Positions 24,530 to 42,528 of a stretch of DNA of 64,000 bases are shown here, in pieces. Made by a program: the position numbers and the translations under genes. Under the pieces are notes generated by a model. The model saw only the letters and a program-made list of their open reading frames with translations, was not told the origin of the DNA and searched no databases. The stretch is from Streptomyces sp. P3 (lineage in GTDB: Bacteria > Actinomycetota > Actinomycetes > Streptomycetales > Streptomycetaceae). How positions within the stretch are numbered: position 1 is the stretch's first letter; every line of letters begins with the position of its first letter. The stretch is from the NCBI RefSeq assembly GCF_003032475.1, contig NZ_CP028369.1, positions 3,720,001 through 3,784,000 of the forward strand, given 5' to 3'.

Positions 24530-24978
24530 GCTGTTCCTTACCTGTCAGAGGGGCGGTGTGGGGGCTGGGTGGGTCTATGGGTCCCGCTCGGTGCCTCGCG
24601 GGCGTCACGCGGATGGCTCCGCCTGTTTCTCGGGCGTATGCACCGCCCCATCGTGTACCTACGCGCCGCAAACGTCATCTCTACCCCTAGGTAACAGCAG
24701 CCCGTTCGGATCTCGTACCCTTGGATGGTTCTCAAATGCGCAAACAGGGCAGATAGGTGTGGTGTACGTCACGATCCGTCCGCACCGTGTGCCTGGAGTT
24801 GCGTCGAGACGGCCAGGATCGTCACCGTTTCGGCGGTCCGAACCGCCGGGTACTTGCGCGATCCGTCCCGTCCGTGTGGACTACGGCCAATGCCTCGCGC
24901 ACGCGCGTGGCTGAGTTTCCCCCCAGCCCTGGACGGGCCCGGGGGAACCCCATCCGAATCAAGATCAGGAGGCAACCC
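24530..24978. other. 449-bp divergent regulatory region between aceE and the DUF3052 gene
   Basis: No credible gene is seen. The region is less GC-rich around 24655-24775, where promoters for both directions are expected. It contains the palindromic CCTAGG core (24688-24693) within TACCCCTAGGTAAC. A ribosome site AGGAGG at 24967-24972 serves the DUF3052 gene. The long leader in front of that gene (about 200 bp after the AT-richer zone) could hold regulatory RNA, but no known class was recognised. Confidence 0.45.
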
Positions 24979-25416
24979 GTGAGCGCGACCGCGGACCACG
25001 CGGAGGAGCGGACCAGCCCTGCCGTCAGGCTGGGTTTCCAGCCCGAGCAGGTGGTCCAGGAGATCGGCTACGACGACGACGTCGACCAGGAGCTCCGCGA
25101 GTCCATCGAGGAAGTCATCGGCAGCGATCTGGTGGACGAGGACTACGACGACGTCGCCGACGCCGTGGTGCTCTGGTTCCGCGACGATGACGGAGACCTG
25201 ACGGATGCGCTGGTGGACGCCACCACGTACATCGAAGAAGGCGGGTCGATCCTCCTCCTGACGCCGAAGACCGGCCGTACGGGATACGTGGAGCCGAGCG
25301 ACATCTCCGAAGCCGCGACGACTGCGGGTCTGTCGGCCAGCAAGAGCGTCAGCGTCGGCAAGGACTGGAGCGGCAGCCGGCTGGTGACGCCCAAGGCGGC
25401 CAAGTCCAAGAAGTGA
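24979..25416 (+). CDS. DUF3052 family protein
   Basis: 145 residues from a GTG with AGGAGG seven bases upstream. The protein is strongly acidic in the first half ([19 protein letters not shown]) and basic at the very C terminus (PKAAKSKK). DUF3052 is confined to actinobacteria. In M. tuberculosis the homologue Rv2239c lies between aceE and ahpE, the same order as here. No catalytic motif is visible. Biochemical role is not established; linkage suggests central metabolism or redox stress. Confidence 0.85.
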
Positions 25417-25528
25417 TGTGACGTGCGGACGGGCCGGGCTCACGCCTTCGGCCCGTCCGTCGGCCTTCGGCGGGGCGCTGCGTAGGGTGGGTCTCACCCA
25501 GACAGCCCATCCGAAGGGACATCCAGGC

Positions 25529-25987
25529 ATGGCGATCCAGGTCGGCGACAAGGCCCCCGACTTCGAGCTCAAGGACAACCACGGCCGGGCCGTGAAGCTC
25601 TCCGACTTCCGGGGCGACAAGAACGTCGTCCTGCTCTTCTACCCCTTCGCCTTCACCGGCGTGTGCACCGGGGAGCTGTGCGAGGTGCGCGACCACCTGC
25701 CGCAGTTCGCCGACCGCGACACCCAGGTGCTCGCCGTTTCCAACGACTCGATCCACACCCTGCGCGTCTTCGCCGAACAGGAGGGCCTGGAGTACCCGCT
25801 GCTGAGCGACTTCTGGCCGCACGGCGAGGTGTCCCGCGCCTACGGCGTCTTCGCCGAGGACAAGGGCTGCGCGGTGCGCGGCACCTTCGTCATCGACAAG
25901 GAGGGCGTCGTGCGCTGGACGGTCGTCAACGCCCTGCCGGACGCGCGTGACCTCGGCGAGTACGTCAAGGCGCTCGACACCCTGTGA
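25529..25987 (+). CDS. Peroxiredoxin, AhpE-like
   Basis: 152 residues, the length of 1-Cys AhpE/BCP-type peroxiredoxins. The peroxidatic Cys46 is in [14 protein letters not shown], with the conserved Pro/Thr at the family positions. Cys51 follows closely, so a two-Cys mechanism is possible, unlike mycobacterial AhpE where that position is not Cys. It reduces hydroperoxides in the cytoplasm. The ATG is preceded by GAAGGGAC. It follows the DUF3052 gene by 112 bp; the pairing is conserved in actinobacteria. Confidence 0.9.
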
Positions 25988-26100: not shown

Positions 26101-26676
26101 GTGGGAGTCAGCCTCAGCAAGGGCGGCAACGTATCGCTGACCAAGGAGGCCCCGGGCCTGACCGCGGTCATCGTCGGTCTGGGGTGGGACGTCCGCACCA
26201 CGACCGGCACCGACTTCGACCTGGACGCCAGCGCGCTGCTGGTGAACAACGCCGGCAAGGTCGCCAGTGACGCCAACTTCGTCTTCTTCAACAACCTGAA
26301 GAGCCCCGACGGCTCGGTCGAGCACACCGGTGACAACACCACCGGTGAGGGCGAGGGCGACGACGAGGCGATCAAGGTCAACCTCGCCACGGTCCCCGCC
26401 GACGTCGACAAGATCGTCTTCCCGGTGTCGATCTACGACGCCGAGAACCGGCAGCAGTCCTTCGGGCAGGTCCGCAACGCGTTCATCCGCGTCGTGAACC
26501 AGGCCGGCGGGGCCGAGATCGCCCGCTACGACCTCAGCGAGGACGCGAGCACGGAGACCGCGATGGTCTTCGGCGAGCTGTACCGGCACGGCGCCGAGTG
26601 GAAGTTCCGTGCCATCGGCCAGGGCTACGCCTCAGGCCTGCGCGGCATCGCGCAGGACTTCGGCGTCAACGTCTGA
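26101..26676 (+). CDS. TerD-family calcium-binding stress protein (copy 1)
   Basis: 191 residues, the canonical TerD length. It opens [20 protein letters not shown] (GTG start) and carries the acidic metal-binding signatures DLDASALL and [14 protein letters not shown]. It ends with [19 protein letters not shown]. TerD proteins bind Ca2+ through these aspartates and act in the tellurite, colicin and phage stress response. The GTG at 26101 has GGAGG five bases upstream; the ATG four codons earlier overlaps that site and is rejected. It is the first gene of the Ter module; a hairpin follows it. Confidence 0.93.
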
Positions 26677-26708
26677 GTCACCCGCGCAGGACCCGATTCA
26701 TCTGGACG

Positions 26709-26743
26709 CCAGGCGCCGCACCGTCTCTACGGGCGGCGCCTGG
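26709..26743 (+). terminator. Hairpin between the two terD copies
   Basis: Perfect 11-bp arms (26709-26719 and 26733-26743) with a 13-nt loop, 33 bp after the first terD stop. A shorter TCCCCC/GGGGGA stem follows. It could terminate, or act as a processing or attenuation site giving different levels of the two TerD proteins. Confidence 0.55.
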
Positions 26744-26816
26744 GGGGTCCCCCTCCGGGGGAGTCCAGGACAACCGAAGAGACTGCCTGAGCATGACCTA
26801 GGGGAGGACCAGCAAT

Positions 26817-27392
26817 ATGGGCGTCACGCTCGCCAAGGGGGGCAACGTCTCCCTGTCCAAGGCCGCGCCGAACCTCACGCAGGTGATGGTCGGACTCGGC
26901 TGGGACGCGCGCTCCACCACCGGAGCCCCCTTCGACCTGGACGCCAGCGCCCTGCTGTGCACCGGCGGGCGGGTCATGGGGGACGAGTGGTTCGTCTTCT
27001 ACAACCAGCTCCAGAGCCCGGACGGCTCGGTGGAGCACACCGGCGACAACCTGACCGGCGAGGGCGAGGGCGACGACGAGTCGCTGATCGTGAACCTCCT
27101 CAAGGTTCCGCCGCAGTGCGACAAGATCGTCTTTCCCGTCTCCATCCACATGGCCGACGAGCGGGGCCAGACCTTCGGTCAGGTCTCCAACGCGTTCATC
27201 CGCGTCGTCAACCAGGCCGACGGCCAGGAGCTCGCCCGCTACGACCTCAGCGAGGACGCCGGCACGGAGACCGCGATGATCTTCGGCGAGTTGTACCGGT
27301 ATCAGGGCGAGTGGAAGTTCAGGGCCGTGGGACAGGGGTACGCGTCGGGTCTGCGGGGCATCGCCCTCGACTTCGGGGTGAACGTCTCCTAG
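26817..27392 (+). CDS. TerD-family calcium-binding stress protein (copy 2)
   Basis: 191 residues, paralogous to copy 1 along its full length. The same acidic signatures occur ([22 protein letters not shown]) and the same ending ([13 protein letters not shown]). Copy 2 carries two cysteines, in LLCTGGR and PPQCDKI, that copy 1 lacks, so redox sensitivity could differ. The ATG has GGGGAGGA upstream. It precedes the TerC-like gene by 183 bp of structured leader. Together the two copies look like a tandem duplication followed by divergence. Confidence 0.93.
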
Positions 27393-27528
27393 CAGTCCCG
27401 GATTCCGCACGGAGGCCGACTACCGATCGGTACGGGGCCCGCCCGCCCCTTACGGAGCAGTCGACCCTTAGACTTCGCAGCTGAAAGTCAATGTTTCGTA
27501 AAGCCGAGTACGGCGCGGGGGAGACCCG

Positions 27529-27569
27529 CCCTCAGATCCGTCTGAGGGGACCCCCAACACAGGATTGGG
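27529..27569 (+). promoter_or_regulatory. Double-hairpin leader of the TerC-like gene
   Basis: Hairpin 1 has 8-bp arms CCCTCAGA/TCTGAGGG around a TCCG tetraloop (27529-27548). Hairpin 2 has CCCAA/TTGGG arms (27553-27569). The GTG start follows six bases later, and the only purine-rich stretch that could serve as ribosome site is GGATTGGG, part of it inside hairpin 2. A translational switch or a terminator plus reinitiation are both possible. Confidence 0.45.
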
Positions 27570-27575
27570 TAGCCA

Positions 27576-28724
27576 GTGCTTCTGAAAACTTTCGGCTGGT
27601 CGTTCGCGATCACCGCGCTCGGCCTGGTCGCAGCGGCCTTCTACGGGGGGTGGGAGGCGCTCGGCATCGTGGCGATCCTCTGCATCCTGGAGATCTCGCT
27701 GTCGTTCGACAACGCGGTGGTCAACGCCGGGATCCTGAAGAAGATGAACGCCTTCTGGCAGAAGATCTTCCTCACGATCGGCGTGCTGATCGCGGTCTTC
27801 GGCATGCGGCTGGTCTTCCCCGTCGTCATCGTCGCCATCAGCGCCAAGATCGGTCCGATCGACGCGGTCGACCTCGCGCTCAACGACAAGGACCAGTACC
27901 AGCAGCTCGTCACCGACGCCCACCCGTCGATCGCCGCGTTCGGTGGCATGTTCCTGTTGATGATCTTCCTGGACTTCATCTTCGAGGACCGGGACATCCA
28001 GTGGCTGCGCTGGATCGAGCGCCCGCTCGCCAAGCTCGGCAAGGTCGACATGCTGTCGGTCTGCATCGCCCTGATCGTCCTGCTGATCACCTCCTTCACC
28101 TTCGCCGCCCACGCCCACCAGCACGGCGGGGCGCACGTCGACAAGGCGGAGACGGTCCTGATCTCGGGCATCGCCGGCCTGATCACGTACATGATCGTCG
28201 GCGGCCTCTCCGGCTACTTCGAGGACAAGCTCGAGGAAGAGGAGGAGCGGGAGCACGAGGAAGAGGAGGAGGCCGCGCGCACCGGTAAGCAGCGCCCGGC
28301 GATCGTCCTCGCCGGCCAGGCCGCCTTCTTCATGTTCCTCTACCTCGAGGTCCTCGACGCCTCCTTCTCCTTCGACGGAGTGATCGGCGCGTTCGCGGTC
28401 ACCAACGACATCGTCCTGATGGCCCTCGGCCTCGGCGTCGGCGCCATGTACGTCCGGTCCCTCACCGTGTACCTGGTCCGCCAGGGCACCCTCGACGACT
28501 ACGTCTACCTGGAGCACGGCGCCCACTACGCCATCGGCGCCCTGGCCGTGCTCCTCCTGGTCACCATCCAGTACCAGATCCACGAGGTCATCACCGGCCT
28601 GATCGGCGTTCTGCTGATCGCCTGGTCCTTCTGGTCCTCCGTACGACGCAACAAGGCGCTGGCAGCGGCAGAGGGAAAAGCGACGGCCTCGGACGAGAAG
28701 ACTGAGGTGTCGTCCGGGGTGTGA
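27576..28724 (+). CDS. TerC-like DUF475 integral membrane protein
   Basis: 382 residues with seven to nine membrane segments. The paired TerC/DUF475 signatures are visible: LEISLSFDNAVVNAGILKK near residue 40 and LEVLDASFSFDGVIGAF near residue 260, each with membrane aspartates thought to bind metal. A highly acidic cytoplasmic loop (EEEEREHEEEEEA) sits between the halves. TerC proteins are linked to Mn2+ export and to metallation of exported proteins. The GTG start has no good Shine-Dalgarno. It ends at a strong terminator. Confidence 0.9.
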   Translation: MLLKTFGWSFAITALGLVAAAFYGGWEALGIVAILCILEISLSFDNAVVNAGILKKMNAFWQKIFLTIGVLIAVFGMRLVFPVVIVAISAKIGPIDAVDLALNDKDQYQQLVTDAHPSIAAFGGMFLLMIFLDFIFEDRDIQWLRWIERPLAKLGKVDMLSVCIALIVLLITSFTFAAHAHQHGGAHVDKAETVLISGIAGLITYMIVGGLSGYFEDKLEEEEEREHEEEEEAARTGKQRPAIVLAGQAAFFMFLYLEVLDASFSFDGVIGAFAVTNDIVLMALGLGVGAMYVRSLTVYLVRQGTLDDYVYLEHGAHYAIGALAVLLLVTIQYQIHEVITGLIGVLLIAWSFWSSVRRNKALAAAEGKATASDEKTEVSSGV

Positions 28725-28751
28725 TCACCTTCTGCGTGAGGAACGCTCTGA

Positions 28752-28800
28752 GCGGGGCGGCCGGTGAGGAAACTGTCCTCCACGGCCGCCCCGCCGGTTT
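28752..28800 (+). terminator. Intrinsic terminator after the TerC-like gene
   Basis: Perfect 12-bp GC-rich arms (28752-28763 and 28783-28794), followed by CGGTTTT. A T-run is rare in this genome, so this is one of the clearest intrinsic terminators in the window. Confidence 0.75.
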
Positions 28801-28824
28801 TCATCGTGGACGTGGGGGCGGGGA

Positions 28825-29562
28825 ATGGGCATCTTCGACGGGCTGCTGGGCAGCCGCGCGACCGACTTCGACTCGGGCAACGCGGCCACGAACGCGATCG
28901 AGCTGACCAAACGGCACAGCCAGGTCTCCCTCACCAAACAGGGGGCCGCCACCGGCAACCTGCGCGTCAACCTCGCCTGGCGGATGCGGACGTCCGACAT
29001 CGGCGGGCCGCAGCGGGAGAGCCTGCTGCGCCACCCCTTCAAGGCGCTGCGGCCCCCGGAGGTCGTCGGGCACAGCCAGAGCATGGTCAACGTCGACCTC
29101 GACCTCGGCTGCCTGTACGAACTGGCCGACGGCACGAAGGGCGTCGTGCAGCCGCTCGGCGGACTGCTGGGCGACGTGAACGCGGCGCCGTACGTGAAGC
29201 TCAGCGGCGACGACCGGTTCGGCTCGGCGTCCGGCGAGACGATGTACGTCAACCTCGACCACCGCGACGAGATCAAACGGCTGCTGGTCTTCGTGTACAT
29301 CTACGACCAGACACCGGCGTTTGACCGCACCCACGCGATCGTCACGCTGTACCCGAGCAACGGGCCGCGGATCGAGATAGGCCTCGACGAGCGGCACCCG
29401 CAGGCCCGCTCCTGCGCGGTGGTGATGATAGAGAACGTCAAGGGCGAGCTGATGGTGCGACGCGAGGTGCGGTTCGTCTACGGCTTCCAGGCGGAGCTGG
29501 ACCGACTGTACGGGTGGGGGCTGCAGTGGGGGCGCGGCTACAAGACGAAGGCCGAGCGGTAG
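28825..29562 (+). CDS. TerD-domain protein, extended form (TerA/TerF-like)
   Basis: 245 residues, longer than canonical TerD. The N-terminal 35 residues (MGIFDGLLGSRATDFDSG) are an extra segment; the TerD fold follows with VNVDLDLGCLYELADGTKG and GLDERHPQARSCAVVMIENV. The acidic repeat [14 protein letters not shown] of the two canonical copies is replaced by LSGDDRFGSASGETM, so calcium binding may differ. It starts 24 bp after the intrinsic terminator and converges on the tailed TerD gene. Probably part of a membrane-associated Ter complex with the TerC-like protein. Confidence 0.85.
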   Translation: MGIFDGLLGSRATDFDSGNAATNAIELTKRHSQVSLTKQGAATGNLRVNLAWRMRTSDIGGPQRESLLRHPFKALRPPEVVGHSQSMVNVDLDLGCLYELADGTKGVVQPLGGLLGDVNAAPYVKLSGDDRFGSASGETMYVNLDHRDEIKRLLVFVYIYDQTPAFDRTHAIVTLYPSNGPRIEIGLDERHPQARSCAVVMIENVKGELMVRREVRFVYGFQAELDRLYGWGLQWGRGYKTKAER

Positions 29563-29587
29563 GGGCCCGGCCGGGGCCTTCCGCCCC

Positions 29588-30334
29588 TCACCGTCCGACG
29601 AACTGCGGCCCCTGCGGCGGCAGCCGGAACGAACCGTCGGGGTAGCCGTAGCCGTAGGTCGGCAGGCTGGCCGGGTAGCCGTAGGCCGGCGGCTGCTGCG
29701 GGACGGCCGACGTGGGCCGCTCCGGCGGCAGCGGCTGCGACAGGCTGGGCGTGCGCGGAGCCGACGCGGCGGCCTCGGGGACGTCGGCCTCCTCGGACTC
29801 GTCGACCGAGATGCCGAAGTCGGTGGCCAGCCCCTTGAGGCCGTTGGAGTAGCCCTCACCCAGTGCGCGGAACTTCCAGCCCTCCCCGCGCCGGTAGAGC
29901 TCGCCGCAGATGAGAGCCGTCTCCTGGCCCGTCTCCGGGCGGATGTCGAAGGTGGCCAGCGGCTCCCCGTCGGTCGTCGCGTCGTACAGCGCGATGGTGA
30001 GGGAACGTACGCGGTCGAAGGTGACGCCGTCCGCCGAAGCGGTCAGGAGAATACGGCCGACACCGGACTCGACACCGGACAGATCGGTCTGGATCGTGTC
30101 GGTGAGGCCCTCGGCAACCCGCTTCTTGCCGAGCCGCCACACCTTCCCGGAGGGGTGCCGGGGCTGGTTGTAGAAGACGAAGTCCTCGTCGGAGCGCACA
30201 CGACCGTCGAGACCGAGGAGCAGCGCGGAGGCATCGACGTCCGGGACCCCCTGCCCGGGGGTCCAGCGCAGCACGGCGCGCACCGTGGTGGCTTTCAGCG
30301 GGACGTTCGACCCCTTCAGCATCGCGTGCGTCAT
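29588..30334 (-). CDS. TerD-family protein with disordered Pro/Tyr/Gly-rich tail
   Basis: 248 residues. The TerD domain fills residues 1-180 ([55 protein letters not shown]). The last 65 residues are low-complexity and rich in Pro, Tyr and Gly ([17 protein letters not shown]). Such tails may mediate assembly. It is on the opposite strand from the other ter genes, divergent from the CitE-like gene, so one intergenic region may control both. The calcium-binding acidic cluster is weaker than in copies 1 and 2. Confidence 0.88.
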
Positions 30335-30509
30335 GCGGTCATCCTGCCTTCTCGGGCCTGCTCACGACAACGCGGGGTACTCGGCGACCTACATGGTCGA
30401 GTTACCTGAAATTCATGCCCCGGGGGAACCTGGGACATGGATCCCTACGTACTATTACCGGCCACCTCTTGCCGAATCCATGCCATACCTTGCACCACGG
30501 GGGAGATTT

Positions 30510-31676
30510 ATGCGTCATTTCGGGCACCTCGCCCCTGAGGTGCGGCAGCGCCTCTTTCACCGGGAGCCGTGCGTCTTCACGGCGGACTCACCGGCCAGGC
30601 TGCTCTCCGCGGCCCTGGGCGCCACGCTCTACAGCCCGGCCACCCGGCCCCGGCTGGCGGACGACGTCGTCAAGCAGACCGGGCGCGGCGTGGTGTCGAT
30701 GGTGCTGTGCCTGGAGGACTCCATCGGCGACGAGGACGTCGCGGCCGGCGAGGAGAACCTCGTCCGCCAGTTCGCCGAGCTCGCGGACCGCACGGACGGG
30801 GAGCTGCCGCTGCTCTTCATCCGGGTGCGCACGCCCGAACAGATCCCCGACCTGGTCCGGCGACTCGGCGGCAACGCCGGGCTGCTCAGCGGGTTCGTGT
30901 TCCCGAAGTTCACCGAGGAGCGCGGCGTCCCGTTCCTGGAGGCGCTGGCCGGCGCGGAGGCGGCGAGCGGGCACCGCCTGTTCGGCATGCCCGTGCTGGA
31001 GACGCCGGAGCTGATGTACCGCGAGTCGCGGGTGGACGCTCTGGAGGGCATCGCCCGTGCCGTCGACAAGTACCGCAGCCGGGTCCTCGCCCTGCGCCTC
31101 GGCGTGACCGACTTCTGTTCCGCGTACGGACTGCGCCGGGCGCCCGACATGACCGCCTACGACGTCCAGATCGTCGCCTCGGTGATCGCCGACGTGGTGA
31201 ACATGCTGGGACGGGCCGACGGCAGCGGGTTCACCGTGACCGGACCGGTGTGGGAGTACTTCCGGGTCCCCGAGCGCATGTTCAAGCCGATGCTGCGCCA
31301 CAGTCCCTTCCTGGAGGGGCAGGCGGTGGAGCTGCGCGAGAGACTGATCGAGCACGCGATGGACGGTCTGCTGCGCGAGATCTCCCTCGACCAGGCCAAC
31401 GGCCTGCTCGGCAAGACCTGCATCCACCCCTCGCACGTGCCGGCCGTGCACGCGCTGTCCGTGGTCAGTCACGAGGAGTACAGCGACGCGGCGGACATCC
31501 TGCGGCCGGAACGCGGCGGTGGGGGTGTACTGCGGTCGCAGTACACGAACAAGATGAACGAGGTGAAGCCGCACCGCGCCTGGGCCGAGCGCACCATGCT
31601 GCGCGCGGAGGTCTTCGGCGTCGCGCACGAGGACGTCAGCTTCGTCGACCTGCTCGCAGCCGGCATACCCGGCTAG
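30510..31676 (+). CDS. HpcH/HpaI aldolase-citrate lyase (CitE-like) protein of the Ter module
   Basis: 388 residues from an ATG with GGGGGAG four bases upstream. The TIM-barrel CitE superfamily forms or breaks C-C bonds next to a CoA thioester or keto acid. Visible features include the Arg-containing RLGVTDFCSAYGLRRAP, the acidic metal motif in LCLEDSIGDEDV, and HPSHVPAVHALSVV near the C terminus. It is larger than CitE lyases and is the form found in Ter biosynthetic modules. It begins a plus-strand operon with the phosphoribosyltransferase fusion (103 bp) and the HAD gene. Substrate unknown. Confidence 0.85.
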   Translation: MRHFGHLAPEVRQRLFHREPCVFTADSPARLLSAALGATLYSPATRPRLADDVVKQTGRGVVSMVLCLEDSIGDEDVAAGEENLVRQFAELADRTDGELPLLFIRVRTPEQIPDLVRRLGGNAGLLSGFVFPKFTEERGVPFLEALAGAEAASGHRLFGMPVLETPELMYRESRVDALEGIARAVDKYRSRVLALRLGVTDFCSAYGLRRAPDMTAYDVQIVASVIADVVNMLGRADGSGFTVTGPVWEYFRVPERMFKPMLRHSPFLEGQAVELRERLIEHAMDGLLREISLDQANGLLGKTCIHPSHVPAVHALSVVSHEEYSDAADILRPERGGGGVLRSQYTNKMNEVKPHRAWAERTMLRAEVFGVAHEDVSFVDLLAAGIPG

Positions 31677-31779
31677 GGTCTCCTGTTCGGGTCGGGGCGG
31701 TCGGGGCGCGATGCCGGGGCCCGCGAGCCCGGTCCGGCCCGAACGAGAGCCCCTCACCCACCTCACGATCTAGGGACGC

Positions 31780-34314
31780 ATGAGAAACGCAGTGAACAAC
31801 GGGGTCTGGTCCGGGACCTGGGTCGCCGAGCGGCTCGGACTGGAGCTGGTGGGCGACGACGCGCTGCCGGAGATGCTGGGGCTGGCCCTGCGCCGCAACC
31901 CCAAGCGGGCGCATCTGCTGGTCTCCCACGTCCTGGGCAAGCACGTCCCGCAGTCGCCGGCGGTCGTCCACGGCCACGGCCTCGCCCTCGGCCGCCGGGT
32001 GCGGGAGCTGCTCGGCCCCGAGGAGGCGGCGAGGGCGGTCGTCCTCGGCTACGCGGAGACGGCCACCGGTCTCGGCCACAGCGTCGCCGACGGCGTCGGC
32101 GTCGCCCCGTACCTGCACTCCACCCGGCGTCCGGTCCCGGGCGTCGCGACGGCGGGCGGTTTCGAGGAGTCCCACTCCCACGCCACCTCCCACCTGCTGC
32201 TGCCGGAGGACCCGACCCTGCTGGTCGGCGACGGCCCGCTGGTGCTGGTGGACGACGAGTTCTCCACCGGCAACACCGTGCTGAACACGATCCGCGACCT
32301 GCACGGGCGCTATCCGCGGGACCGGTACGTCGTCGTCGCCCTCGTCGACATGCGCTCGGCGGCCGACGCGGGCCGCCTCGACGACTTCGCCCGCGAGATC
32401 GGCGCCCGGGTGGACCTGGTCGCCACCGCCTCGGGCGCGGTCCGCCTCCCGGAAGGGGTGCTGGAGAAGGGGCAGGCCCTGGTCGCCCGGTACGAGGCCG
32501 CGGCCGCCGCGAGCGGTGAGCGGTCGTCCGCGGGCTCGTCGGGGCCGGCCGCACCGGACCCGCACCCGGCGGACGACCGCACCGGGCAGCCGGGCGCCCG
32601 GGACAGCGCGACCCGCGTGGACCTGCACTGGCCGCGCGGCCTGCCGGACGGCGGCCGGCACGGCTTCACCCCCGCCCACCGGGGCCGGCTCGAGGCCGCC
32701 CTCCCCGCCATGGCGGCCCGCCTCGCGGAAGCGATACCCGCCGACGCGCGGAGCGTCCTGGTGCTCGGCTTCGAGGAGCTGATGTACACGCCGCTGCGGC
32801 TGGCGCGGGAGCTGGGGGAGACCGTCTCCGCCGAGGTGCGCTACTCGACCACCACCCGCTCGCCCGTCCTCGCGGTCGACGACCCCGGCTACGCGATACG
32901 CAGCCGGATCGTCTTCCCCGCCCACGACGACCCCGCAGACGGCCCCGGCGAGCGCTATGCCTACAACGTCGCAGGCGGCGGCTTCGACGCCGTCGTCGCC
33001 GTCGTGGACTCGGTGGCGGACACCCCGCCGCTGCACGCCCCCGACGGCCTTCTGTCCCGGCTGGCCGCGCACACCCCGCACGTCGTCCTCGCGGTCGTCC
33101 CCTCGTACGTCCCCGAGCCGCTGTACGCAGCCGCACTGCCCGAAAAGAGACCCGTCATGCTGCCCGAGCCCCTTCGCGGCCCCGCCTTCTCCTCGTACGC
33201 GCCCGAGGAGGTCGGCTGGCTGCTCCAGGACCTCTCGGACGTGACGCTGGAGGCGCCGACCGAGGAGCGGGAGGAGGCCATCCAGAGCGGCGGCGCGCAC
33301 TACGCCGAGTCGCTGCCCGTCGAGTACCAGCCCAGCGAGCAGTACCAGGAGCTGTTCCACGCGGCCCTCGAGACCTCGGCGGAGCGGATCGCGCGGGCCG
33401 TGGGCGTCGTCACCGAGACCGTGATCGCGGAGCGCTCGCCGCGGCCCGTCCTCGTCTCGCTGGCCCGGGCCGGGACCCCGGTCGGCGTGCTGATGCGCCG
33501 CTGGGCGCAGTTCCGGCACGGCCTCGACCTGCCGCACTACGCCGTGTCGATCGTGCGCGGCCGGGGCATCGACGCCAACGCGCTGCGCTGGCTCGCGGCC
33601 CATCACGACCCGCGGGACGTCGTGTTCGTCGACGGCTGGACCGGCAAGGGCGCGATCACCCGGGAACTGGCCGCGGCGATCGAGGAGTTCGAGGCGGGCG
33701 GCGGCGCGGCCGGCTTCGACCCGGAGATCGCGGTGCTGGCCGACCCCGGCTCGTGCGTGCGGACGTACGGCACCCGGGAGGACTTCCTCATCCCGTCCGC
33801 CTGCCTCAACTCGACCGTCTCCGGGCTGATCTCACGGACCGTCCTGCGCGCCGACCTGGTCGGGCCGGACGACTTCCACGGCGCGAAGTTCTACCGGGAG
33901 CTCGCCGGCGTGGACGTCTCTGCGGACTTCCTGGACGCCGTGGCCGCCCGCTTCCCCGAGGTCGCGGAAGCCGTCGGCGGCGCGGTGAAGGAGCTGCTCG
34001 CCGGTGACCGCACGCCGAGCTGGCAGGGCTGGGCGGCGGTGGAGCGGATCAGCGAGGAGTACGGCATCCACGACGTGAACCTGGTCAAGCCGGGCGTCGG
34101 AGAGACCACGCGGGTGCTGCTGCGCCGGGTGCCGTGGAAGATCCTGGCGCGGGCCGGGGCGGGCGCCGACCTGGACCACGTACGGCTGCTCGCCGGACAG
34201 CGAGGGGTGCCCGTCGAGGAGGTCGGTGACCTGCCGTACACCTGCGTGGGTCTGATCCACCCGCAGTTCACCCGCGGTGCGACCGGCGCCGACGGCAAGG
34301 CGGTGACGGTCTGA
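31780..34314 (+). CDS. Fused phosphoribosyltransferase-TRSP-phosphoribosyltransferase protein of the Ter module
   Basis: 844 residues with three recognisable parts. Residues 1-240 are a phosphoribosyltransferase domain with PRPP loop LVLVDDEFSTGNTV (154-167). Residues 280-455 are the TRSP domain, named for T-R-S-P, seen here at 359-362 in YSTTTRSPVLAVDD. Residues 460-844 are a second phosphoribosyltransferase-like domain with LVSLARAGTPVGVLMRRW and VVFVDGWTGKGA (614-625). A low-complexity linker (241-275) follows the first domain. In many bacteria the second unit is a separate gene beginning near the equivalent of Met460, so this looks like a gene fusion. It overlaps the HAD start by one base. 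Predicted product: a ribosylated metabolite. Confidence 0.85.
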   Translation: MRNAVNNGVWSGTWVAERLGLELVGDDALPEMLGLALRRNPKRAHLLVSHVLGKHVPQSPAVVHGHGLALGRRVRELLGPEEAARAVVLGYAETATGLGHSVADGVGVAPYLHSTRRPVPGVATAGGFEESHSHATSHLLLPEDPTLLVGDGPLVLVDDEFSTGNTVLNTIRDLHGRYPRDRYVVVALVDMRSAADAGRLDDFAREIGARVDLVATASGAVRLPEGVLEKGQALVARYEAAAAASGERSSAGSSGPAAPDPHPADDRTGQPGARDSATRVDLHWPRGLPDGGRHGFTPAHRGRLEAALPAMAARLAEAIPADARSVLVLGFEELMYTPLRLARELGETVSAEVRYSTTTRSPVLAVDDPGYAIRSRIVFPAHDDPADGPGERYAYNVAGGGFDAVVAVVDSVADTPPLHAPDGLLSRLAAHTPHVVLAVVPSYVPEPLYAAALPEKRPVMLPEPLRGPAFSSYAPEEVGWLLQDLSDVTLEAPTEEREEAIQSGGAHYAESLPVEYQPSEQYQELFHAALETSAERIARAVGVVTETVIAERSPRPVLVSLARAGTPVGVLMRRWAQFRHGLDLPHYAVSIVRGRGIDANALRWLAAHHDPRDVVFVDGWTGKGAITRELAAAIEEFEAGGGAAGFDPEIAVLADPGSCVRTYGTREDFLIPSACLNSTVSGLISRTVLRADLVGPDDFHGAKFYRELAGVDVSADFLDAVAARFPEVAEAVGGAVKELLAGDRTPSWQGWAAVERISEEYGIHDVNLVKPGVGETTRVLLRRVPWKILARAGAGADLDHVRLLAGQRGVPVEEVGDLPYTCVGLIHPQFTRGATGADGKAVTV

Positions 34315-35132
34315 TGCCGGTTCTGGTGGCGAGCGACCTCGACCGTACGCTCATCTACTCGGCGGCGGCGCTGGCGCTGACCATGCCGGACGCCCGGGCT
34401 CCGCGGCTGCTGTGCGTGGAGGTGCACGAGGCGAGACCGCTGTCGTTCATGACCGAGACGGCGGCGCAGCTGCTCACCGACCTCGGGGACGCGGCGCTGT
34501 TCATGCCGACGACGACCCGGACGCGCAAGCAGTACCAGCGCATCAACCTCCCCGGGCCGCCGCCGAAGTACGCGATCTGCGCCAACGGCGGCCATCTCCT
34601 CGTCGACGGGGCGACCGACCACGACTGGCACGCGCGCGTGCTCGCGCGGCTGGCCGACGAGTGCGCGCCGCTCGCGGAGGTGCAGGAGTACCTGGCGAAG
34701 ACGGCGGACCCGCTCTGGCTGCGCAAGCAGCGGGTCGCCGAGGACCTGTTCGCCTACCTCGTCGTGGAGCGCGAGCTGCTGCCCGAGGAGTGGGTGAAGG
34801 AACTGGCGGCCTGGGCGGAGAACCGCGGCTGGACCGTGTCGCTCCAGGGCCGCAAGATCTACGCCGTGCCGAAGCCGCTCACCAAGAGCGCCGCCGTGCG
34901 TGAGGTGGTCCGCCGCACCGGCGCCGAACTGACGCTGGCGGCGGGCGACTCGCTGCTCGACGCCGACCTGCTGCTGGCCGCGGACCGCGGCTGGCGTCCG
35001 GGCCACGGCGAGCTGGCGGACGCGGCCTGGGCGGCCCCGCAGATCACCGCCCTGCCGGAGCGTGGCGTGCTGGCCGGGGAGCGCATTCTGCGGGAGTTCC
35101 TCAGGGATTGTCGCGGAATCCGACCCGCGTAA
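34314..35132 (+). CDS. HAD-superfamily phosphatase of the Ter module
   Basis: 272 residues. Motif I is DLDRTLIY with Asp8 as nucleophile and Asp10 as acid; motif III Lys lies near KPLTKSAAV and motif IV is GDSLLDADLLLAADRG. The large cap between motifs I and III resembles the Cof/sucrose-phosphatase type, which dephosphorylates sugar phosphates or nucleotides. TGATG overlap couples it to the fused phosphoribosyltransferase. It would remove a phosphate from the intermediate made by its partner. It ends at a strong hairpin. Confidence 0.88.
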   Translation: MPVLVASDLDRTLIYSAAALALTMPDARAPRLLCVEVHEARPLSFMTETAAQLLTDLGDAALFMPTTTRTRKQYQRINLPGPPPKYAICANGGHLLVDGATDHDWHARVLARLADECAPLAEVQEYLAKTADPLWLRKQRVAEDLFAYLVVERELLPEEWVKELAAWAENRGWTVSLQGRKIYAVPKPLTKSAAVREVVRRTGAELTLAAGDSLLDADLLLAADRGWRPGHGELADAAWAAPQITALPERGVLAGERILREFLRDCRGIRPA

Positions 35133-35402: not shown

Positions 35403-35639
35403 GCGGTCAGACTAAGCCCCTATGCTCGGAGACGGTGTCAGCAGTTTTACCTCTGTTCGCTTCTGTCACTTTCTTATGTGGAGAATTTGCGAAGAGCGCT
35501 GGTAATTTGAGAGCGCCGCGCTGGACCCCTAGGTCGGAGGGTTCACTGTTTGCGGCCGCGTCAACGGCAACCATGTCAGGCCCTCGGAAGTCTGTACGTC
35601 TGCCTGCGAGCAATACGGAGTGCGGGAGGGAGACGGGTC

Positions 35640-37865
35640 GTGACCCAGGCGGGGCAGGGGGAGGAGCCCCAAGAACCGGACGCCACCATGCAGTTGAAGG
35701 TGCCGGCCGCTTTCCAGGCGGACGAGACCATGCAGCTGCGCGTGTCGGACATACCGGTCGACGCGGATATATTCCAGGGGGGTGCCGACGGCGAGGCACG
35801 TTCGTCGAAGAATCGGCGCAAGGCCCCCCGCCCTCCCCTGCATGTCCGCATTTCTGCGGCTCTGGGCCCTCGACTCGCCCCGCTCCTCGCCGTGCTGGCG
35901 CCGTATGTGTCTCGTGTCACTCCGTACGTCCGCAAACTGCGCCCGCAGTACCCGCGGCCCGGCCGTGACGGCTGGCGGCGCTGGATACCCTCCTGGCGTC
36001 AGTGGCTCGGCGGGGTCCTCGGCTCCATAGGTCTGACCGGCATGTTCCTGGCCGTTGCCTACGCCGCCACCGACATCCCGGACAATCTCAACACCTATGC
36101 CACACAGCAGGACAACGTGTACTTCTGGGCCGACGGGACGCCGATGGCCCGCACCGGCTGGGTGCAGCGGCAGGCGATGCCGCTGAAGGACATCCCCGAG
36201 GACGTCCGCTGGGCCGTGCTCTCCGCGGAGAACGCGAGCTTCTACAGCGACCCCGGCATCTCCTTCAAGGGCATCAGCCGGGCCCTGTTCCGCACCATCG
36301 GCCAGGGCGACACCCAGGGCGGCTCCACGATCACCCAGCAGTACGTGAAGAACGTCTACCTGAACCAGAACCAGACGATCAGCCGCAAGTTCACCGAGGC
36401 GATGATCTCCCTCAAGCTCGACAACCAGATGAGCAAGGACGACATCCTCGAGGGCTATCTCAACACCAGCTGGTTCGGCCGCGGCACCTACGGCATCCAG
36501 CGCGCCGCCCAGGCCTACTACGGCAAGGACGTCGGCGAGCTCAACGCCAGCGAGGCCGCGTTCCTCGCCTCGCTCCTCAAGGGCGCCGGCCTGTACGACC
36601 CGACCCTCAACTCCGCCAACCGCGCCAGGGCCGTCGAGCGCTGGTCGTGGACCCTGGACCGGATGGTCGAGATCGGCAAGCTGTCGAAGGCCGAGCGTGC
36701 CACCTACAGGAAGTTCCCCGAGCCGCTCAAGGCCAACCCGCTGTACGACACCGGTGAGCAGAGCGACTACCTGGTGGAACTCGCCGCCCAGTACGCCAAG
36801 AAGGCCGGGAACATCTCCGACAAGGACTTCGACCTCGGCGGCTACCAGATCTACACGACCTTCGACAAGAAGCGCGAGGCCCAGCTCACCGAGGCCGTCA
36901 CCAAGGCCCGCGACAAGGCCCTCAAGGGCGATCCGAAGAACGCGAAGGCCGCCCACTACGGCGCGTCCTCGGTGGCCGCCGACGGGCGGATCCTCGCCGT
37001 GTACGGCGGCCCCGACCACCGTACGCAGGGCTACAACGAGTCCAACGCCACCACCGTCCCGGCCGGCAGCGCCTTCCTGCCGTTCGTCTACGCGGCCGGC
37101 CTGGAGCACGGCGTCCACAAGACCCGCGAGGGGGGAACCACGCCTGTCACCGGGGAGTCGCTGTACGACGGCAACGACAAGGTGCTGGTGAAGACGCCCG
37201 AGGGCCCCTACTGGGACCGCAGCGGCAATCCGGTGGCCGCGAAGAACGACGGGGGCAGGTCCTACGGGCAGATCTCCCTGCGGCGGGCGCTGGAGCTGTC
37301 GGTGAACACGCCGTTCATGCAGCTCGGCATGGACACCGGCCTGGACCTGGTGCGTGCCACCGCCGAGAAGTCCGGGCTGCTGCCCTCCAGCTTCGGGGCG
37401 CAGGTGCCGGCCCTGACCACGGGCAGCGCCACGCCCAGCGCGATCCGCATGGCCAGCGGCTACGCCACCTTCGCCGCGGACGGCAAGCACACCGAGCCGT
37501 ACTCGGTGCGGCTGATCACCAAGAACGGCGCCAAGCTCGTCCTGGAGACCCCGAGCGCCGACCGGGCGATGAGCGCGCGCGTGGCCAGGGAGGTCAGCTC
37601 GGCGCTCGCCGACTCCTTCCGCACGGCCCACCCCGGGGACACGCCCGACACGCCGTCCCGGGTGGCCGGGAAGGCGGGCACCACCCAGAACGACACCGCC
37701 GCCTGGTTCGTCGGCACCGCCAAGTCCGTCTCCACGGCGGTCGTCGTCTACCGCATCGACCTCACCAAGAGCCTCGAACCGCTTCCCCTGAAAGGCATCG
37801 CAGGCACGTCCCAGAAAAGCGTCCCGTACGGCATCTGGTCAGGTGCCATGAGCCCGCTCGGCTGA
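35640..37865 (+). CDS. Bifunctional class A penicillin-binding protein with altered catalytic motifs
   Basis: 741 residues from a GTG with GGAGGG upstream. A cytoplasmic tail with two TMQL repeats (residues 16-19 and 30-33) precedes one membrane segment near 126-142. The glycosyltransferase domain (150-340) has SAENASFYSDPG with Glu197 and GGSTITQQYVKN, although EDxxFxxH is changed to ENASFYSD. The transpeptidase domain (400-720) shows S477-A-F-L480 where SxxK is expected, so the catalytic lysine is absent. S554-V-N and K678-A-G-T are near-normal. It is followed within 50 bp by a deacetylase-like gene, suggesting a cell-wall operon. Confidence 0.88.
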   Translation: MTQAGQGEEPQEPDATMQLKVPAAFQADETMQLRVSDIPVDADIFQGGADGEARSSKNRRKAPRPPLHVRISAALGPRLAPLLAVLAPYVSRVTPYVRKLRPQYPRPGRDGWRRWIPSWRQWLGGVLGSIGLTGMFLAVAYAATDIPDNLNTYATQQDNVYFWADGTPMARTGWVQRQAMPLKDIPEDVRWAVLSAENASFYSDPGISFKGISRALFRTIGQGDTQGGSTITQQYVKNVYLNQNQTISRKFTEAMISLKLDNQMSKDDILEGYLNTSWFGRGTYGIQRAAQAYYGKDVGELNASEAAFLASLLKGAGLYDPTLNSANRARAVERWSWTLDRMVEIGKLSKAERATYRKFPEPLKANPLYDTGEQSDYLVELAAQYAKKAGNISDKDFDLGGYQIYTTFDKKREAQLTEAVTKARDKALKGDPKNAKAAHYGASSVAADGRILAVYGGPDHRTQGYNESNATTVPAGSAFLPFVYAAGLEHGVHKTREGGTTPVTGESLYDGNDKVLVKTPEGPYWDRSGNPVAAKNDGGRSYGQISLRRALELSVNTPFMQLGMDTGLDLVRATAEKSGLLPSSFGAQVPALTTGSATPSAIRMASGYATFAADGKHTEPYSVRLITKNGAKLVLETPSADRAMSARVAREVSSALADSFRTAHPGDTPDTPSRVAGKAGTTQNDTAAWFVGTAKSVSTAVVVYRIDLTKSLEPLPLKGIAGTSQKSVPYGIWSGAMSPLG

Positions 37866-37914
37866 CCACCGAGCAGGCCGCCCGTGTCCCCAGAATCCGG
37901 AGAATGAGCCGCAC

Positions 37915-39201
37915 ATGAAGTCACCGTCGGGCCGCCGCCGCAAGGCCCCGGCAACAACGCGCCGCCCCGCTGCCACGCACCCGGGGTTCCTGACGCTGGC
38001 GGCGCTGCTCGTCGTCGCGTCCCTGGTGGCCGGATATCTGGTGCTCAACAGCACAACGAACACCGAGCCGACCGCGTCGTCGGGGGACAGCAAGAAGGCG
38101 TCGGCGGGGGCGACCGAGGAGCCGGCGTGGGACGGCAAGACGCATGTGCTGGGGGACGGATCCACCTCGTACACCGGTCCGCAGAAGGGCGAGCTGAAGC
38201 CGGTCCCGCTCAAGCCGGGGGAGAAGCCGCCCCAGTTCGTGGTCTTCTCCTGGGACGGCGCGCTCATGGGCGACGACGGTCTCTTCGAGCACTACCGGAA
38301 GATGGCCGAGCAGTACAACGCGCACATGACCTTCTTCCTCACCGGCATCTACCTGCTGCCCAAGAGCAAGAAGGACCTGTACTCCCCGCCGCAGCACCCC
38401 AAGGGCTCCGCCGCGATCAGCTTCCCCACCGACGAACACATCCGCACCACGCTGGAGCAGCTCGGCGAGGCGTGGAAGGAGGGGAACGAGATCGGCACCC
38501 ACTTCAACGGCCACTTCTGCGGCGCCAAGGGCGGCAAGGACTGGAGCGTCGAGGAGTGGAAGAGCGAGATCGACCAGTTCTACAAGTTCGTGGAGAACTG
38601 GAAGACCAACACCGGCTACCAGGACATCGCCCCGCTGCCCTTCGACTTCAAGAAGGCGGTCGTCGGCGGCCGGGCGCCCTGCCTGGAGGGACAGGCGAAC
38701 CTGCTGAAGGCCGCCAAGGGCTACGGCTGGCGCTACGACGCGTCCTCCGCCGGCGACTTCCAGATCTGGCCGACGAAGAAGAACGGCATCTGGGACTTCC
38801 CGCTGCAGATGCTCCCGTACGAGGGCGGCAAGTACCAGGGCCTGTCCATGGACTTCAACTTCCTGTACAACCAGACCAAGGGGGAGGTCCACGGCAACCC
38901 GGCCGAGTACCCGCAGTGGGAACAGGAGACCGCCGACGCCTACATGGCGGGCTTCAACCGCGTGTACTACGGCAGCAGGGCGCCGCTCTTCATCGGCAAC
39001 CACTTCGAGGACTGGAACGGCGGCATCTACATGAAGGCCGTCGACCGGACCATCGAGAACGTGTGCACCAAGAAGGACGTCAAGTGCGTCTCCTTCAAGG
39101 AGCTCGCCGACTGGATGGACGTCCAGACACCCGCCACCCTGGAGCGGCTGCGCACGCTGGATCCCGCGCAGAGCCCGGACTGGTCCACGGTCGTCAAGTG
39201 A
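37915..39201 (+). CDS. Secreted polysaccharide-deacetylase-like protein
   Basis: 428 residues. A basic N terminus and one hydrophobic segment (about 25-45) anchor it; a flexible Ser/Thr/Lys linker follows. The NodB-like domain starts with FVVFSWDGALMGDDG, where the usual first Asp pair is reduced to WD-G. The zinc-type HxxxH motif is present in EIGTHFNGHFCG. Other NodB motifs are hard to place, so activity may differ from peptidoglycan or chitin deacetylation. The ATG has CCGGAGAA upstream. It lies 50 bp after the penicillin-binding protein and probably shares its transcript. Confidence 0.8.
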   Translation: MKSPSGRRRKAPATTRRPAATHPGFLTLAALLVVASLVAGYLVLNSTTNTEPTASSGDSKKASAGATEEPAWDGKTHVLGDGSTSYTGPQKGELKPVPLKPGEKPPQFVVFSWDGALMGDDGLFEHYRKMAEQYNAHMTFFLTGIYLLPKSKKDLYSPPQHPKGSAAISFPTDEHIRTTLEQLGEAWKEGNEIGTHFNGHFCGAKGGKDWSVEEWKSEIDQFYKFVENWKTNTGYQDIAPLPFDFKKAVVGGRAPCLEGQANLLKAAKGYGWRYDASSAGDFQIWPTKKNGIWDFPLQMLPYEGGKYQGLSMDFNFLYNQTKGEVHGNPAEYPQWEQETADAYMAGFNRVYYGSRAPLFIGNHFEDWNGGIYMKAVDRTIENVCTKKDVKCVSFKELADWMDVQTPATLERLRTLDPAQSPDWSTVVK

Positions 39202-39324
39202 CCGCCGGGGGACGGCGGGTGAAGTAACCAAACCTCAACCGCAACCCCCTTCACAACAGCCACACACCCCGTGCGAGGATGCCCTCCTCGGCATCCCATC
39301 GCCGGGGCAAGAGGGGAAACATCA

Positions 39325-41036: not shown

Positions 41037-41145
41037 CTCCGCCTCCCGATAGGTGAGACATGCCGACAGAAGGACGTCACGTGCCCGGAACGTCCGCACG
41101 TGTCCTCGTCATCCAATATCCGCCCGTCGAGCGGCGGGGGCAATG

Positions 41146-42528
41146 TCAGTGCCCGGTGCCGCGCTCCTCGCGGATCCGGGCCACCGTGCCGGCGACCGCC
41201 TGCCGGACGGCCTCCGTCTCGGTGAGGAAGTGCCAGTAGTCGGGGTGCCGGCCCTCCAGCGTGGCGATCGCCCGCTCCAGCCGCGCCACCGACTCGTCCA
41301 GCGGACGCGCGTGCCGGGGGTCGGGCGTGTTGCGCCCCGCCATGGCCAGCCGCTGGGCGTCCCGGATCGCGAACCGGGTCCGGTCGATCTCCGCCCGCGG
41401 ATCCTTCTGTACCGCGTTCAGCCTGGTCAGCCGATCTCCGGCGGCCGACACCGCCTCGTCCGTGGTGTTCAGCAGCGCCCGCACCGTGGACAGCAGCGCG
41501 GTGGCGTCGGGCCAGCGCTGAGCGTCCCGTGCGGCCTGCGCCTCGGACAGCTTCTCCTCGGCCTGCCGGACGTTCTCCCCGGCCTGGTCGGGAACGTGCT
41601 GGAGATCCTGCCAGCAGGCCGCCGTGAACCGCCGGCGCAGCTCGCTGAGCACCGGATCCACCTGTCCCGAGCGGGTGGTCAGCGCCTGCGCGCGGGTACG
41701 CAACGAGACCAGCCGGTGGTCGATCTCGGCGGCCCGCTCCGGCAGCCGTCCGGCCTCCGCGCGGACCGCCTCCGCCTCCCGCGCGACCCGCTCGGCGCGC
41801 TCCAGGGTCTGTGGCAGCCCGTGTTTGCCCGCACCCTGGTTCAGCATCGTCAGCTCCGGCGCGAGCGCCGCCAGCCGGGCCGCCAGGTCGTCCGCCCGCA
41901 GGCCGCTTCCCCGGGCCGCGTCCAGTGCGCCGGAGGCGGCCAGCAGCGCCTGCCGGGCCCGCTCCACGGCCGGCGCGAGCCGGGCCAGTTGCGTCTCGGC
42001 CTTGCCGAGCAGCGGGCCCAGTCCGGCGGCGAACCGGTCCAGCTCCTGCTTGACCCGGCCCAGCTCCTCCTTGGCGCGGGTCAGCCGGTCGCGCGCCTGG
42101 GCGGCCGCCGACGCCTCCAGGTCGTCCCGGTCGAGATCGTGGGCGTCCACCGCTTCGATGTACTGGTGGCTGGCCTCGTCGATGCGCCGGCCGACGGCCT
42201 CGAAGTCGGACACCGCGCGTCCGGCGGCCGGCGAGTCGTCCACCGCCTTGATGGTCTCGATCGAGATGCGCAGATCCCGCTGGGCGCTGTCCAGTTCGTA
42301 GAACGCGGCGGCCGCCGCGTCCTTCGCGGCCTGGGCCTCGGCGCGCTGCTCCTCCGAGCGCCCGCCGAACCAGCGCCGGGTGCCGCCGCCGGCGAACGCG
42401 GCGGGCAGCGCCAGCGCGACCGTCAGGGGAAGGGCGACGAGGATCAGGGTGTCCTTCAGCGCGGTGAGCGCGGGACGGTCCGCGCGCGACGGCGACGGCG
42501 AGTACGGCCGTACTGGTGTCGCCGTCAC
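41146..42528 (-). CDS. Membrane-anchored coiled-coil protein of unknown function
   Basis: 460 residues. One transmembrane helix lies near residues 24-46, followed by an Ala/Glu/Arg-rich region of about 370 residues predicted to be mainly coiled coil. No enzymatic motif or named domain was recognised. The GTG start has GGGAGAGGGA upstream. Such proteins in Streptomyces may act as structural or stress scaffolds, but that is a guess. It follows the DUF4097 lipoprotein on the same strand by 74 bp. Confidence 0.75.
   Translation of the reverse strand: MTATPVRPYSPSPSRADRPALTALKDTLILVALPLTVALALPAAFAGGGTRRWFGGRSEEQRAEAQAAKDAAAAAFYELDSAQRDLRISIETIKAVDDSPAAGRAVSDFEAVGRRIDEASHQYIEAVDAHDLDRDDLEASAAAQARDRLTRAKEELGRVKQELDRFAAGLGPLLGKAETQLARLAPAVERARQALLAASGALDAARGSGLRADDLAARLAALAPELTMLNQGAGKHGLPQTLERAERVAREAEAVRAEAGRLPERAAEIDHRLVSLRTRAQALTTRSGQVDPVLSELRRRFTAACWQDLQHVPDQAGENVRQAEEKLSEAQAARDAQRWPDATALLSTVRALLNTTDEAVSAAGDRLTRLNAVQKDPRAEIDRTRFAIRDAQRLAMAGRNTPDPRHARPLDESVARLERAIATLEGRHPDYWHFLTETEAVRQAVAGTVARIREERGTGH

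What the first reader, a model, noticed from the sequence alone, without database searches (positions are those of the whole stretch)
26101..35132. Ter stress module with an attached metabolite-synthesis operon
Eight genes in about 9 kb combine two canonical TerD proteins, an extended TerD, a tailed TerD on the opposite strand and a TerC-like membrane protein with a CitE-like lyase, a fused double phosphoribosyltransferase and a HAD phosphatase. Seen: the gene order, intact motifs and TGATG coupling of the last two. Known: comparative genomics by Anantharaman, Iyer and Aravind proposed that such modules make a nucleoside-like metabolite. Inferred: PRPP-dependent ribosylation, C-C bond chemistry and dephosphorylation yield a signal or protectant sensed or carried by TerD/TerC. 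The product is, to my knowledge, not known.
Basis: partly seen in the sequence, partly recalled or inferred. Interest (0 to 1): 0.78.

Follow-up and report, generated by a model that had tools for sequence, protein, structure and literature searches.

The report
Streptomyces Ter stress module, ribose-transfer arm
This is the Streptomyces form of a known bacterial stress gene cluster whose enzymes are predicted to build a still unidentified ribose-containing molecule; the work here suggests what one apparently mislabelled enzyme does and adds an overlooked partner gene.

Summary
The eight genes are real and mostly correctly read. They are the Streptomyces form of the Ter module with its biosynthetic operon, proposed in 2012. 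It is near-universal in the genus (StiP in 119 of 121 genomes).

Added here:
(2) The ATP-grasp of proteobacterial modules is absent; a distal homologue occurs in only 41 of 121 Streptomyces genomes.
(3) A coiled-coil gene (41146-42528, minus) belongs to the actinobacterial module: in 149 genomes of the phylum it is in 5 of 6 with StiP, 0 of 143 without.
(4) The operon has a promoter-like element, one block kept in 76 of 76 loci, unmatched elsewhere in the genome.

The product remains unknown.

The parts
26101..26676 (+). TerD, canonical (GTG start; the ORF tool's 26089 ATG is less likely)
   Evidence: Pfam TerD 291 bits; start judged by eye from the sequence
26817..27392 (+). TerD, canonical
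   Evidence: Pfam TerD 271 bits
27576..28724 (+). TerC-family membrane protein, DUF475 type
   Evidence: DUF475 463 bits, TerC 72 bits
28825..29562 (+). TerA-like (divergent TerD) protein, 245 aa
   Evidence: PHROG 5698 3e-9; one-sequence profile matches Ter genes of other modules
29588..30334 (-). TerD with a Pro-rich C-terminal tail, divergent from the biosynthetic operon
   Evidence: Pfam TerD 153 bits
30401..30467 (+). Conserved promoter-like element of the biosynthetic operon (GTTACCnGAAnTTCATGCC ... GGGAAC ... CGTACTATTACCGG)
   Evidence: CGTACTATTACC in 76 of 76 loci, first block in 55 of 76 by a strict pattern, 47-nt spacing in 54 of those 55; exact match only here in the own genome
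30510..31676 (+). CitE-like lyase (C-C_Bond_Lyase)
   Evidence: Pfam 409 bits; profile hits solved CitE and malyl-CoA lyases, best 4e-10
31780..34314 (+). Fusion: PRTase_2, TRSP, StiP (second PRTase-fold domain), PELOTA_1 (L7Ae-like)
   Evidence: Pfam; AlphaFold2 models and fold comparisons
34314..35132 (+). HAD phosphatase, start overlapping the stop of the fusion
   Evidence: TGATG; DxD, T, K and GDxxxD residues in 26-27 of 27 sequences; 6d3v 2e-11
41146..42528 (-). Coiled-coil partner protein ('P396 family', my name), no Pfam family above its cut-off
   Evidence: 38% identity over 211 aa to the gene just upstream of CitE in Prescottella; Pfam scan; co-occurrence with StiP

Best explanation
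The operon is a PRPP-consuming biosynthetic unit. PRTase_2 and StiP are two phosphoribosyltransferase-fold enzymes on one chain; at least StiP most likely transfers 5-phosphoribose from PRPP to an acceptor, in the manner of CriT. The coupled HAD enzyme then removes the 5-phosphate, as CrpP does after CriT. The CitE-like lyase makes or trims the acceptor by C-C bond chemistry. The PELOTA domain gives the enzyme an RNA-binding or RNA-derived-substrate handle. The ribosylated product acts in the stress response of the TerD/TerA/TerC layer, with the coiled-coil protein as scaffold. Shown by computation: genes, domains, conservation, predicted folds, co-occurrence. Inferred: reaction, acceptor, order of steps, link of product to TerD/TerC, role of the coiled coil.
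Against: Foldseek on the StiP model gave no match below E 0.001; its first hit was MetC (0.0019, prob 0.51), and PLP enzymes are interleaved with phosphoribosyltransferases (prob up to 0.99) in its list; the aligner only re-ranks Foldseek's list. Profile-profile comparison of StiP with PRTase_2 gave E 0.0045 but probability only 7.7%, and no PRTase was found for StiP by sequence in the PDB. StiP has DG, not DD or DE, at the PRPP loop, and I see no clear counterpart of CriT's D680; no residue-by-residue superposition on Bcs3 was possible. The HAD's nearest solved relative by sequence is a trehalose phosphatase, not CrpP. One Cys of StiP (C217 of the fragment, in SACLNS) is kept in at least 90% of the 28 rows, which are mostly actinobacterial. 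HAD is not seen in two loci that have the other core enzymes (L021, L114). No metabolite data were found.
Confidence: 0.5

Rival explanations
1. StiP-PELOTA is a PRPP- or nucleotide-sensing RNA-binding regulator, like PyrR, rather than an enzyme of synthesis.
Against: HAD and CitE-like enzymes usually travel with it, which argues for a pathway; StiP keeps an acidic PRPP-loop residue and Ser/Arg loop residues in 27-30 of 30.
Confidence: 0.2
2. StiP is a cysteine protease, as Pfam and RefSeq name it, that acts on Ter proteins under stress.
For: The family name and RefSeq product names (and others); one Cys (in SACLNS) is kept in at least 90% of a 28-row alignment dominated by actinobacterial relatives.
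Against: In 30 diverse StiPs the best Cys column has 17 of 30; no Cys is invariant in 5 or in 21 aligned sequences; the 50 rows shown by the structural aligner are PRTase-fold proteins.
Confidence: 0.05
3. The biosynthetic genes and the TerD/TerC genes merely share a stable chromosomal neighbourhood and work independently.
For: The operon has its own divergent promoter-like element; a stable gene order is common among Streptomyces core genes (general knowledge); terZ-F alone gives E. coli tellurite resistance (PMC8115787, passage).
Against: The same combination recurs in other phyla and in a phage, in different orders.
Confidence: 0.12
4. The pathway makes a true N-nucleoside-like signal, with both PRTases acting on nucleobase-like substrates, as first proposed.
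For: PRTase_2 is nearest to purine and orotate PRTases; later description in PMC7824862 (passage).
Against: StiP's best fold match is an O-ribosyl transferase, not a base PRTase; the Streptomyces cluster has no ATP-grasp, so any ligation step would need another enzyme.
Confidence: 0.3

Closest known systems
Ter biosynthetic module of enterobacterial and Pseudomonas plasmids (L018, L022)
   Same: PRTase_2-TRSP, StiP-PELOTA, CitE-like lyase and HAD beside TerD/TerC genes
   Different: Plasmid version: ATP-grasp first, separate PRTase and StiP genes, order ATP-grasp/PRTase/HAD/StiP/CitE, TerB present. Window: no ATP-grasp or TerB found, PRTase and StiP fused, order CitE/PRTase-StiP/HAD, coiled-coil partner nearby
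Actinobacterial plasmid modules (Prescottella L019, Tsukamurella L116, Mycolicibacterium L118)
   Same: CitE-PRTase-StiP-HAD order, DUF475 TerC, no ATP-grasp found, coiled-coil gene
   Different: There the coiled-coil gene sits directly before CitE, PRTase and StiP are separate genes, and further TerD/vWA-like genes (and TerB in Prescottella) are present
CriT-CrpP pair of the capsule polymerase Bcs3
   Same: PRTase-fold transferase paired with a HAD phosphatase; Bcs3 is StiP's best fold match (PMC10299916 passages)
   Different: No sequence similarity detected; Bcs3 makes a polymer with a ribitol-phosphate transferase, none seen here; acceptor unknown here
Bacillota versions with YceG and TelA (Lactococcus L115; L021)
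   Same: CitE, PRTase, StiP and TerD genes; HAD and DUF475 in L115
   Different: YceG and TelA present there, not found in the Streptomyces cluster

Membership tests
Ter biosynthetic module | PRTase_2-TRSP, StiP-PELOTA, CitE-like lyase and HAD phosphatase next to TerD/TerC genes | tested here: met
Ter biosynthetic module | ATP-grasp enzyme of the ATPgrasp_Ter family in the operon (feature of the proteobacterial modules; whether the 2012 paper makes it defining could not be read) | tested here: not met
   None in the cluster; own-genome homologue is 3.9 Mb away and close orthologues are in 41 of 121 genomes; also not found in the 7 other actinobacterial and 4 Bacillota-type loci, so I treat it as an optional part
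Phosphoribosyltransferase fold (PRTase_2 domain) | type I PRTase fold with the PRPP motif | tested here: met
Phosphoribosyltransferase fold (StiP domain) | type I PRTase fold | tested here: met
CriT-like PRPP-dependent O-ribosyl transferases | sequence similarity and CriT active-site residues | tested here: inconclusive
   No sequence hit; order of Ser/Arg/acid motifs resembles CriT's loops by eye, not superposed
Cysteine protease (label of PF11202) | catalytic Cys conserved across the family | tested here: not met
   at most 17 of 30 diverse sequences; one Cys is at least 90% kept among nearer relatives
HAD phosphatase | DxD, T, K, GDxxxD motifs | tested here: met
   D8, D10, T67, K191, D212, D216 in 26-27 of 27
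CitE / malyl-CoA lyase superfamily | acidic residues and GKTxIHP signature; sequence similarity | tested here: met
   the substrate is untested
Tellurite resistance determinant | confers tellurite resistance | not testable with these tools
   needs a deletion strain

The most novel reading that the evidence does not exclude
StiP and the HAD enzyme are a free-standing, soluble counterpart of the CriT-CrpP ribofuranosylation pair: they put ribose from PRPP on a hydroxyl of a small molecule, protein or RNA (chosen with the PELOTA domain), so the long-sought Ter 'nucleoside-like metabolite' is an O-riboside or a ribosylated macromolecule. In actinobacteria a dedicated coiled-coil protein takes the place of the ATP-grasp part.
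Probability: 0.25. Interest if true: 0.8.

Novelty: new variant of a known kind. Interest (0 to 1): 0.55.

Why it matters
I found no identified product for the Ter biosynthetic arm, proposed in 2012, in the papers searched. The module sits in nearly every Streptomyces sampled, so it can be studied in a harmless, genetically tractable laboratory strain instead of clinical plasmids. Reading StiP as a PRPP enzyme rather than a protease changes which assay to run (PRPP turnover, ribose labelling), and many RefSeq entries carry the protease name (for example those named). The version without ATP-grasp defines a smaller enzyme core to reconstitute, and the co-occurring coiled-coil gene gives a new, concrete target.

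Tried and rejected
Distal ATP-grasp as the missing enzyme: the own-genome ATPgrasp_Ter homologue (C1:7672328-7673503; 26-27% identity to two plasmid Ter ATP-grasps) looked promising. With this protein 120 of 121 Streptomyces genomes have some match, but only 41 have a close one (71-100% identity; six of these 41 with one stop inside the matched stretch), four have a 35-42% relative, G149 a 38-residue piece, and the rest weak matches. StiP is in 119 of 121, and the two StiP-negative genomes (G179, G247) do have it. Rejected.

Prescottella gene before CitE as an ATP-grasp: no similarity to ATP-grasps; it proved to be the coiled-coil family. For the window member EzrA (2.9e-6, below Pfam's cut-off) was the only Pfam match under 0.001, which I read as generic coiled coil; the Prescottella member had none.

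Riboswitch: Rfam gave four matches between 24000 and 37000, all far below gathering score. A regulon sharing the promoter element: further sites at 2-3 mismatches were no more than the reversed control gave. Folding of the leader was considered and not done.

Sequence search of StiP in the PDB: best matches were L7Ae-type, to the PELOTA part; the few others (L24, bullous pemphigoid antigen, N37) had E above 0.4; no PRTase. The full fusion alone found nothing. Phage-defence models, six of the eight proteins scanned: nothing below 0.09. The fold search of the whole 844-aa model tested mainly the PRTase_2 domain (pTM 0.50, so its domain arrangement was not used), hence StiP was modelled alone.

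More StiP relatives in viral contigs: three loci, none in two further scans. Literature on 'cysteine protease StiP': one paper, listing only; tellurite or ter operon with ribofuranosyltransferase or gPRT: one listing, off target. I saw no paper linking StiP to CriT in searches; listings 43 and 132 were capped (40 of 45 and 20 of 742), and most subscription papers, the 2012 one included, are not held.

Mended on checking: StiP motifs are now written with only the positions that the count bears out; the Cys kept among near relatives is told, and for it the protease rival was raised from 0.04 to 0.05.
Full report
WHAT IS THERE. The window lies on a 9.85-Mb single-contig chromosome; its close relatives by protein and DNA are Streptomyces. 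Two refinements: the 'extended TerD' (28825-29562) is a divergent, TerA-like member, and the 'fused double phosphoribosyltransferase' (31780-34314) has four Pfam domains: PRTase_2, TRSP, StiP and PELOTA_1. The own genome has 18 TerD matches, three of them here, and one StiP match.

HOW CONSERVED. StiP is found in 119 of 121 sampled Streptomyces genomes (the two misses are assemblies of 560 and 1420 contigs) and in 74 of 81 sampled genomes of the family, 16 of 17 genera. The CitE-like family has a match in 120 of 121 Streptomyces genomes (in G218 only a weak one, and G197, an 82%-complete assembly, has none). In a sample drawn across the phylum it is rare: 6 of 149, of which four are the genus itself. 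Elsewhere it is often on plasmids: 2567 of 72,556 plasmid records hold a match to the fusion, some to a small part only, and four phage-collection records do, two of them the same phage. In 87 fetched loci the full order from TerD to HAD is complete in 67; PRTase and StiP lie in separate frames in one (L039). The fusion is not confined to Streptomyces: G050, of another family, has it as a 902-aa frame. Nor is it universal: six StiP hits lie in open frames of only 382-443 aa (G183, G195, G204, G218, G244, G256), not examined further.

NO ATP-GRASP. A profile of four proteobacterial Ter ATP-grasps found the gene in six loci of those printed: L018, L022, L120, L124 and the viral contigs L110 and L111 (besides the weak distal own-genome homologue in L103). 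It was not found in the window, in seven other actinobacterial loci (L019, L104, L105, L116-L119), in four Bacillota-type loci (L021, L113-L115), in phage ME3 (L020), or in five proteobacterial loci (L121-L123, L125, L126; several of these lie beside IS elements or at a record end). An earlier two-sequence profile found it in none of the 87 loci. The own-genome homologue 3.9 Mb away does not follow StiP (41 of 121).

A NEW PARTNER. The gene directly before CitE in Prescottella (L019) has 38% identity over 211 aa to window 41146-42528, minus strand. The family lies directly before CitE in L019, L104, L116, L118 and L119, and was not found in L105 and L117, where no CitE was found either. In Streptomyces it lies 2.3-10 kb from the start of StiP, past HAD and on the opposite strand (76 of 87 rows; rows with short flanks cannot show it). 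In the 149-genome sample of the phylum the family has a match in five, which are five of the six with StiP, and in none of the 143 without (the first look scored at most 12 candidates a genome). Four of the five are one genus, so the independent events are fewer than the counts; the fifth (G050) belongs to another family, and the plasmid and Nocardia loci are further cases. At least four genes (35550-41099) separate it from HAD in this window.

PROMOTER. The roughly 175-base space between the tailed TerD and CitE holds two conserved blocks: CGTACTATTACC in 76 of 76 loci, and GTTACCnGAAnTTCAyGCC in 55 of 76 by a strict pattern, 47 nt apart in 54 of those 55; by eye many of the 21 misses differ at one or two bases, L091 more. 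GGGAAC lies between in most rows printed. Each block has an exact match only here in the own genome. GGGAAC resembles an ECF-sigma -35 (recalled, not tested).

WHAT IT MOST LIKELY DOES. See Best explanation. Literature on the TerD/TerC side: three Streptomyces 'tellurium resistance proteins', one 92% identical to SCO2368, rise under oxidative stress in S. viridochromogenes (PMC3912134, passages); SCO2368 has been tied to calcium homeostasis (title in reference lists only); a TerC protein of Bacillus exports manganese (PMC12096827, passages). terZ-F alone suffices for tellurite resistance in E. coli MG1655 (PMC8115787, passage), so the biosynthetic arm is not needed for that phenotype there and probably does something else.

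VERDICT. A near-universal Streptomyces edition of a known, product-unknown module: new variant of a known kind. The parts worth following are the StiP-HAD ribosylation hypothesis and the overlooked coiled-coil partner.

Noticed in passing
window 35550-41099: Genes between HAD and the coiled-coil partner: a long ORF with penicillin-binding-protein-like sequence by eye (35550-37865), two secreted-looking ORFs (37915-39201, 39271-40497) and a small membrane-protein-like gene (40485-41099, minus). In many relatives the partner lies much nearer HAD, so this may be a lineage-specific spacer.
   Followed up: partly
G000 C1:7672328-7673503 (L103, L108): Stand-alone ATP-grasp gene of the ATPgrasp_Ter family, patchy in Streptomyces (41 of 121 genomes), with no other Ter-profile match in the 18-kb stretch L103.
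   Followed up: yes
L110, 3907-9381: IMG/VR contig with CitE, PRTase, StiP, HAD (weak, 69 bits) and an ATP-grasp on one strand, in the Gram-positive order plus ATP-grasp.
   Followed up: no
L021 (MT836648.1): Record labelled Bacteriophage sp. carries PRTase, StiP, CitE, YceG, TelA and three TerD genes next to housekeeping-like genes; it may be a bacterial chromosome fragment rather than a phage.
   Followed up: no
L105 8759-10977 (minus): Divergent PRTase_2/StiP pair with WTSGGG in place of WTGKGA in the StiP loop and no CitE found in the locus: possibly an early-branching version.
   Followed up: no
G170 C2:545643-546374: One Streptomyces genome of the 121 has a second, more divergent StiP (277 bits) in a 440-aa frame on another contig.
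   Followed up: no
window 24757-25987: Just upstream of the Ter genes, same strand: a DUF3052 protein and an AhpC/TSA peroxiredoxin.
   Followed up: no
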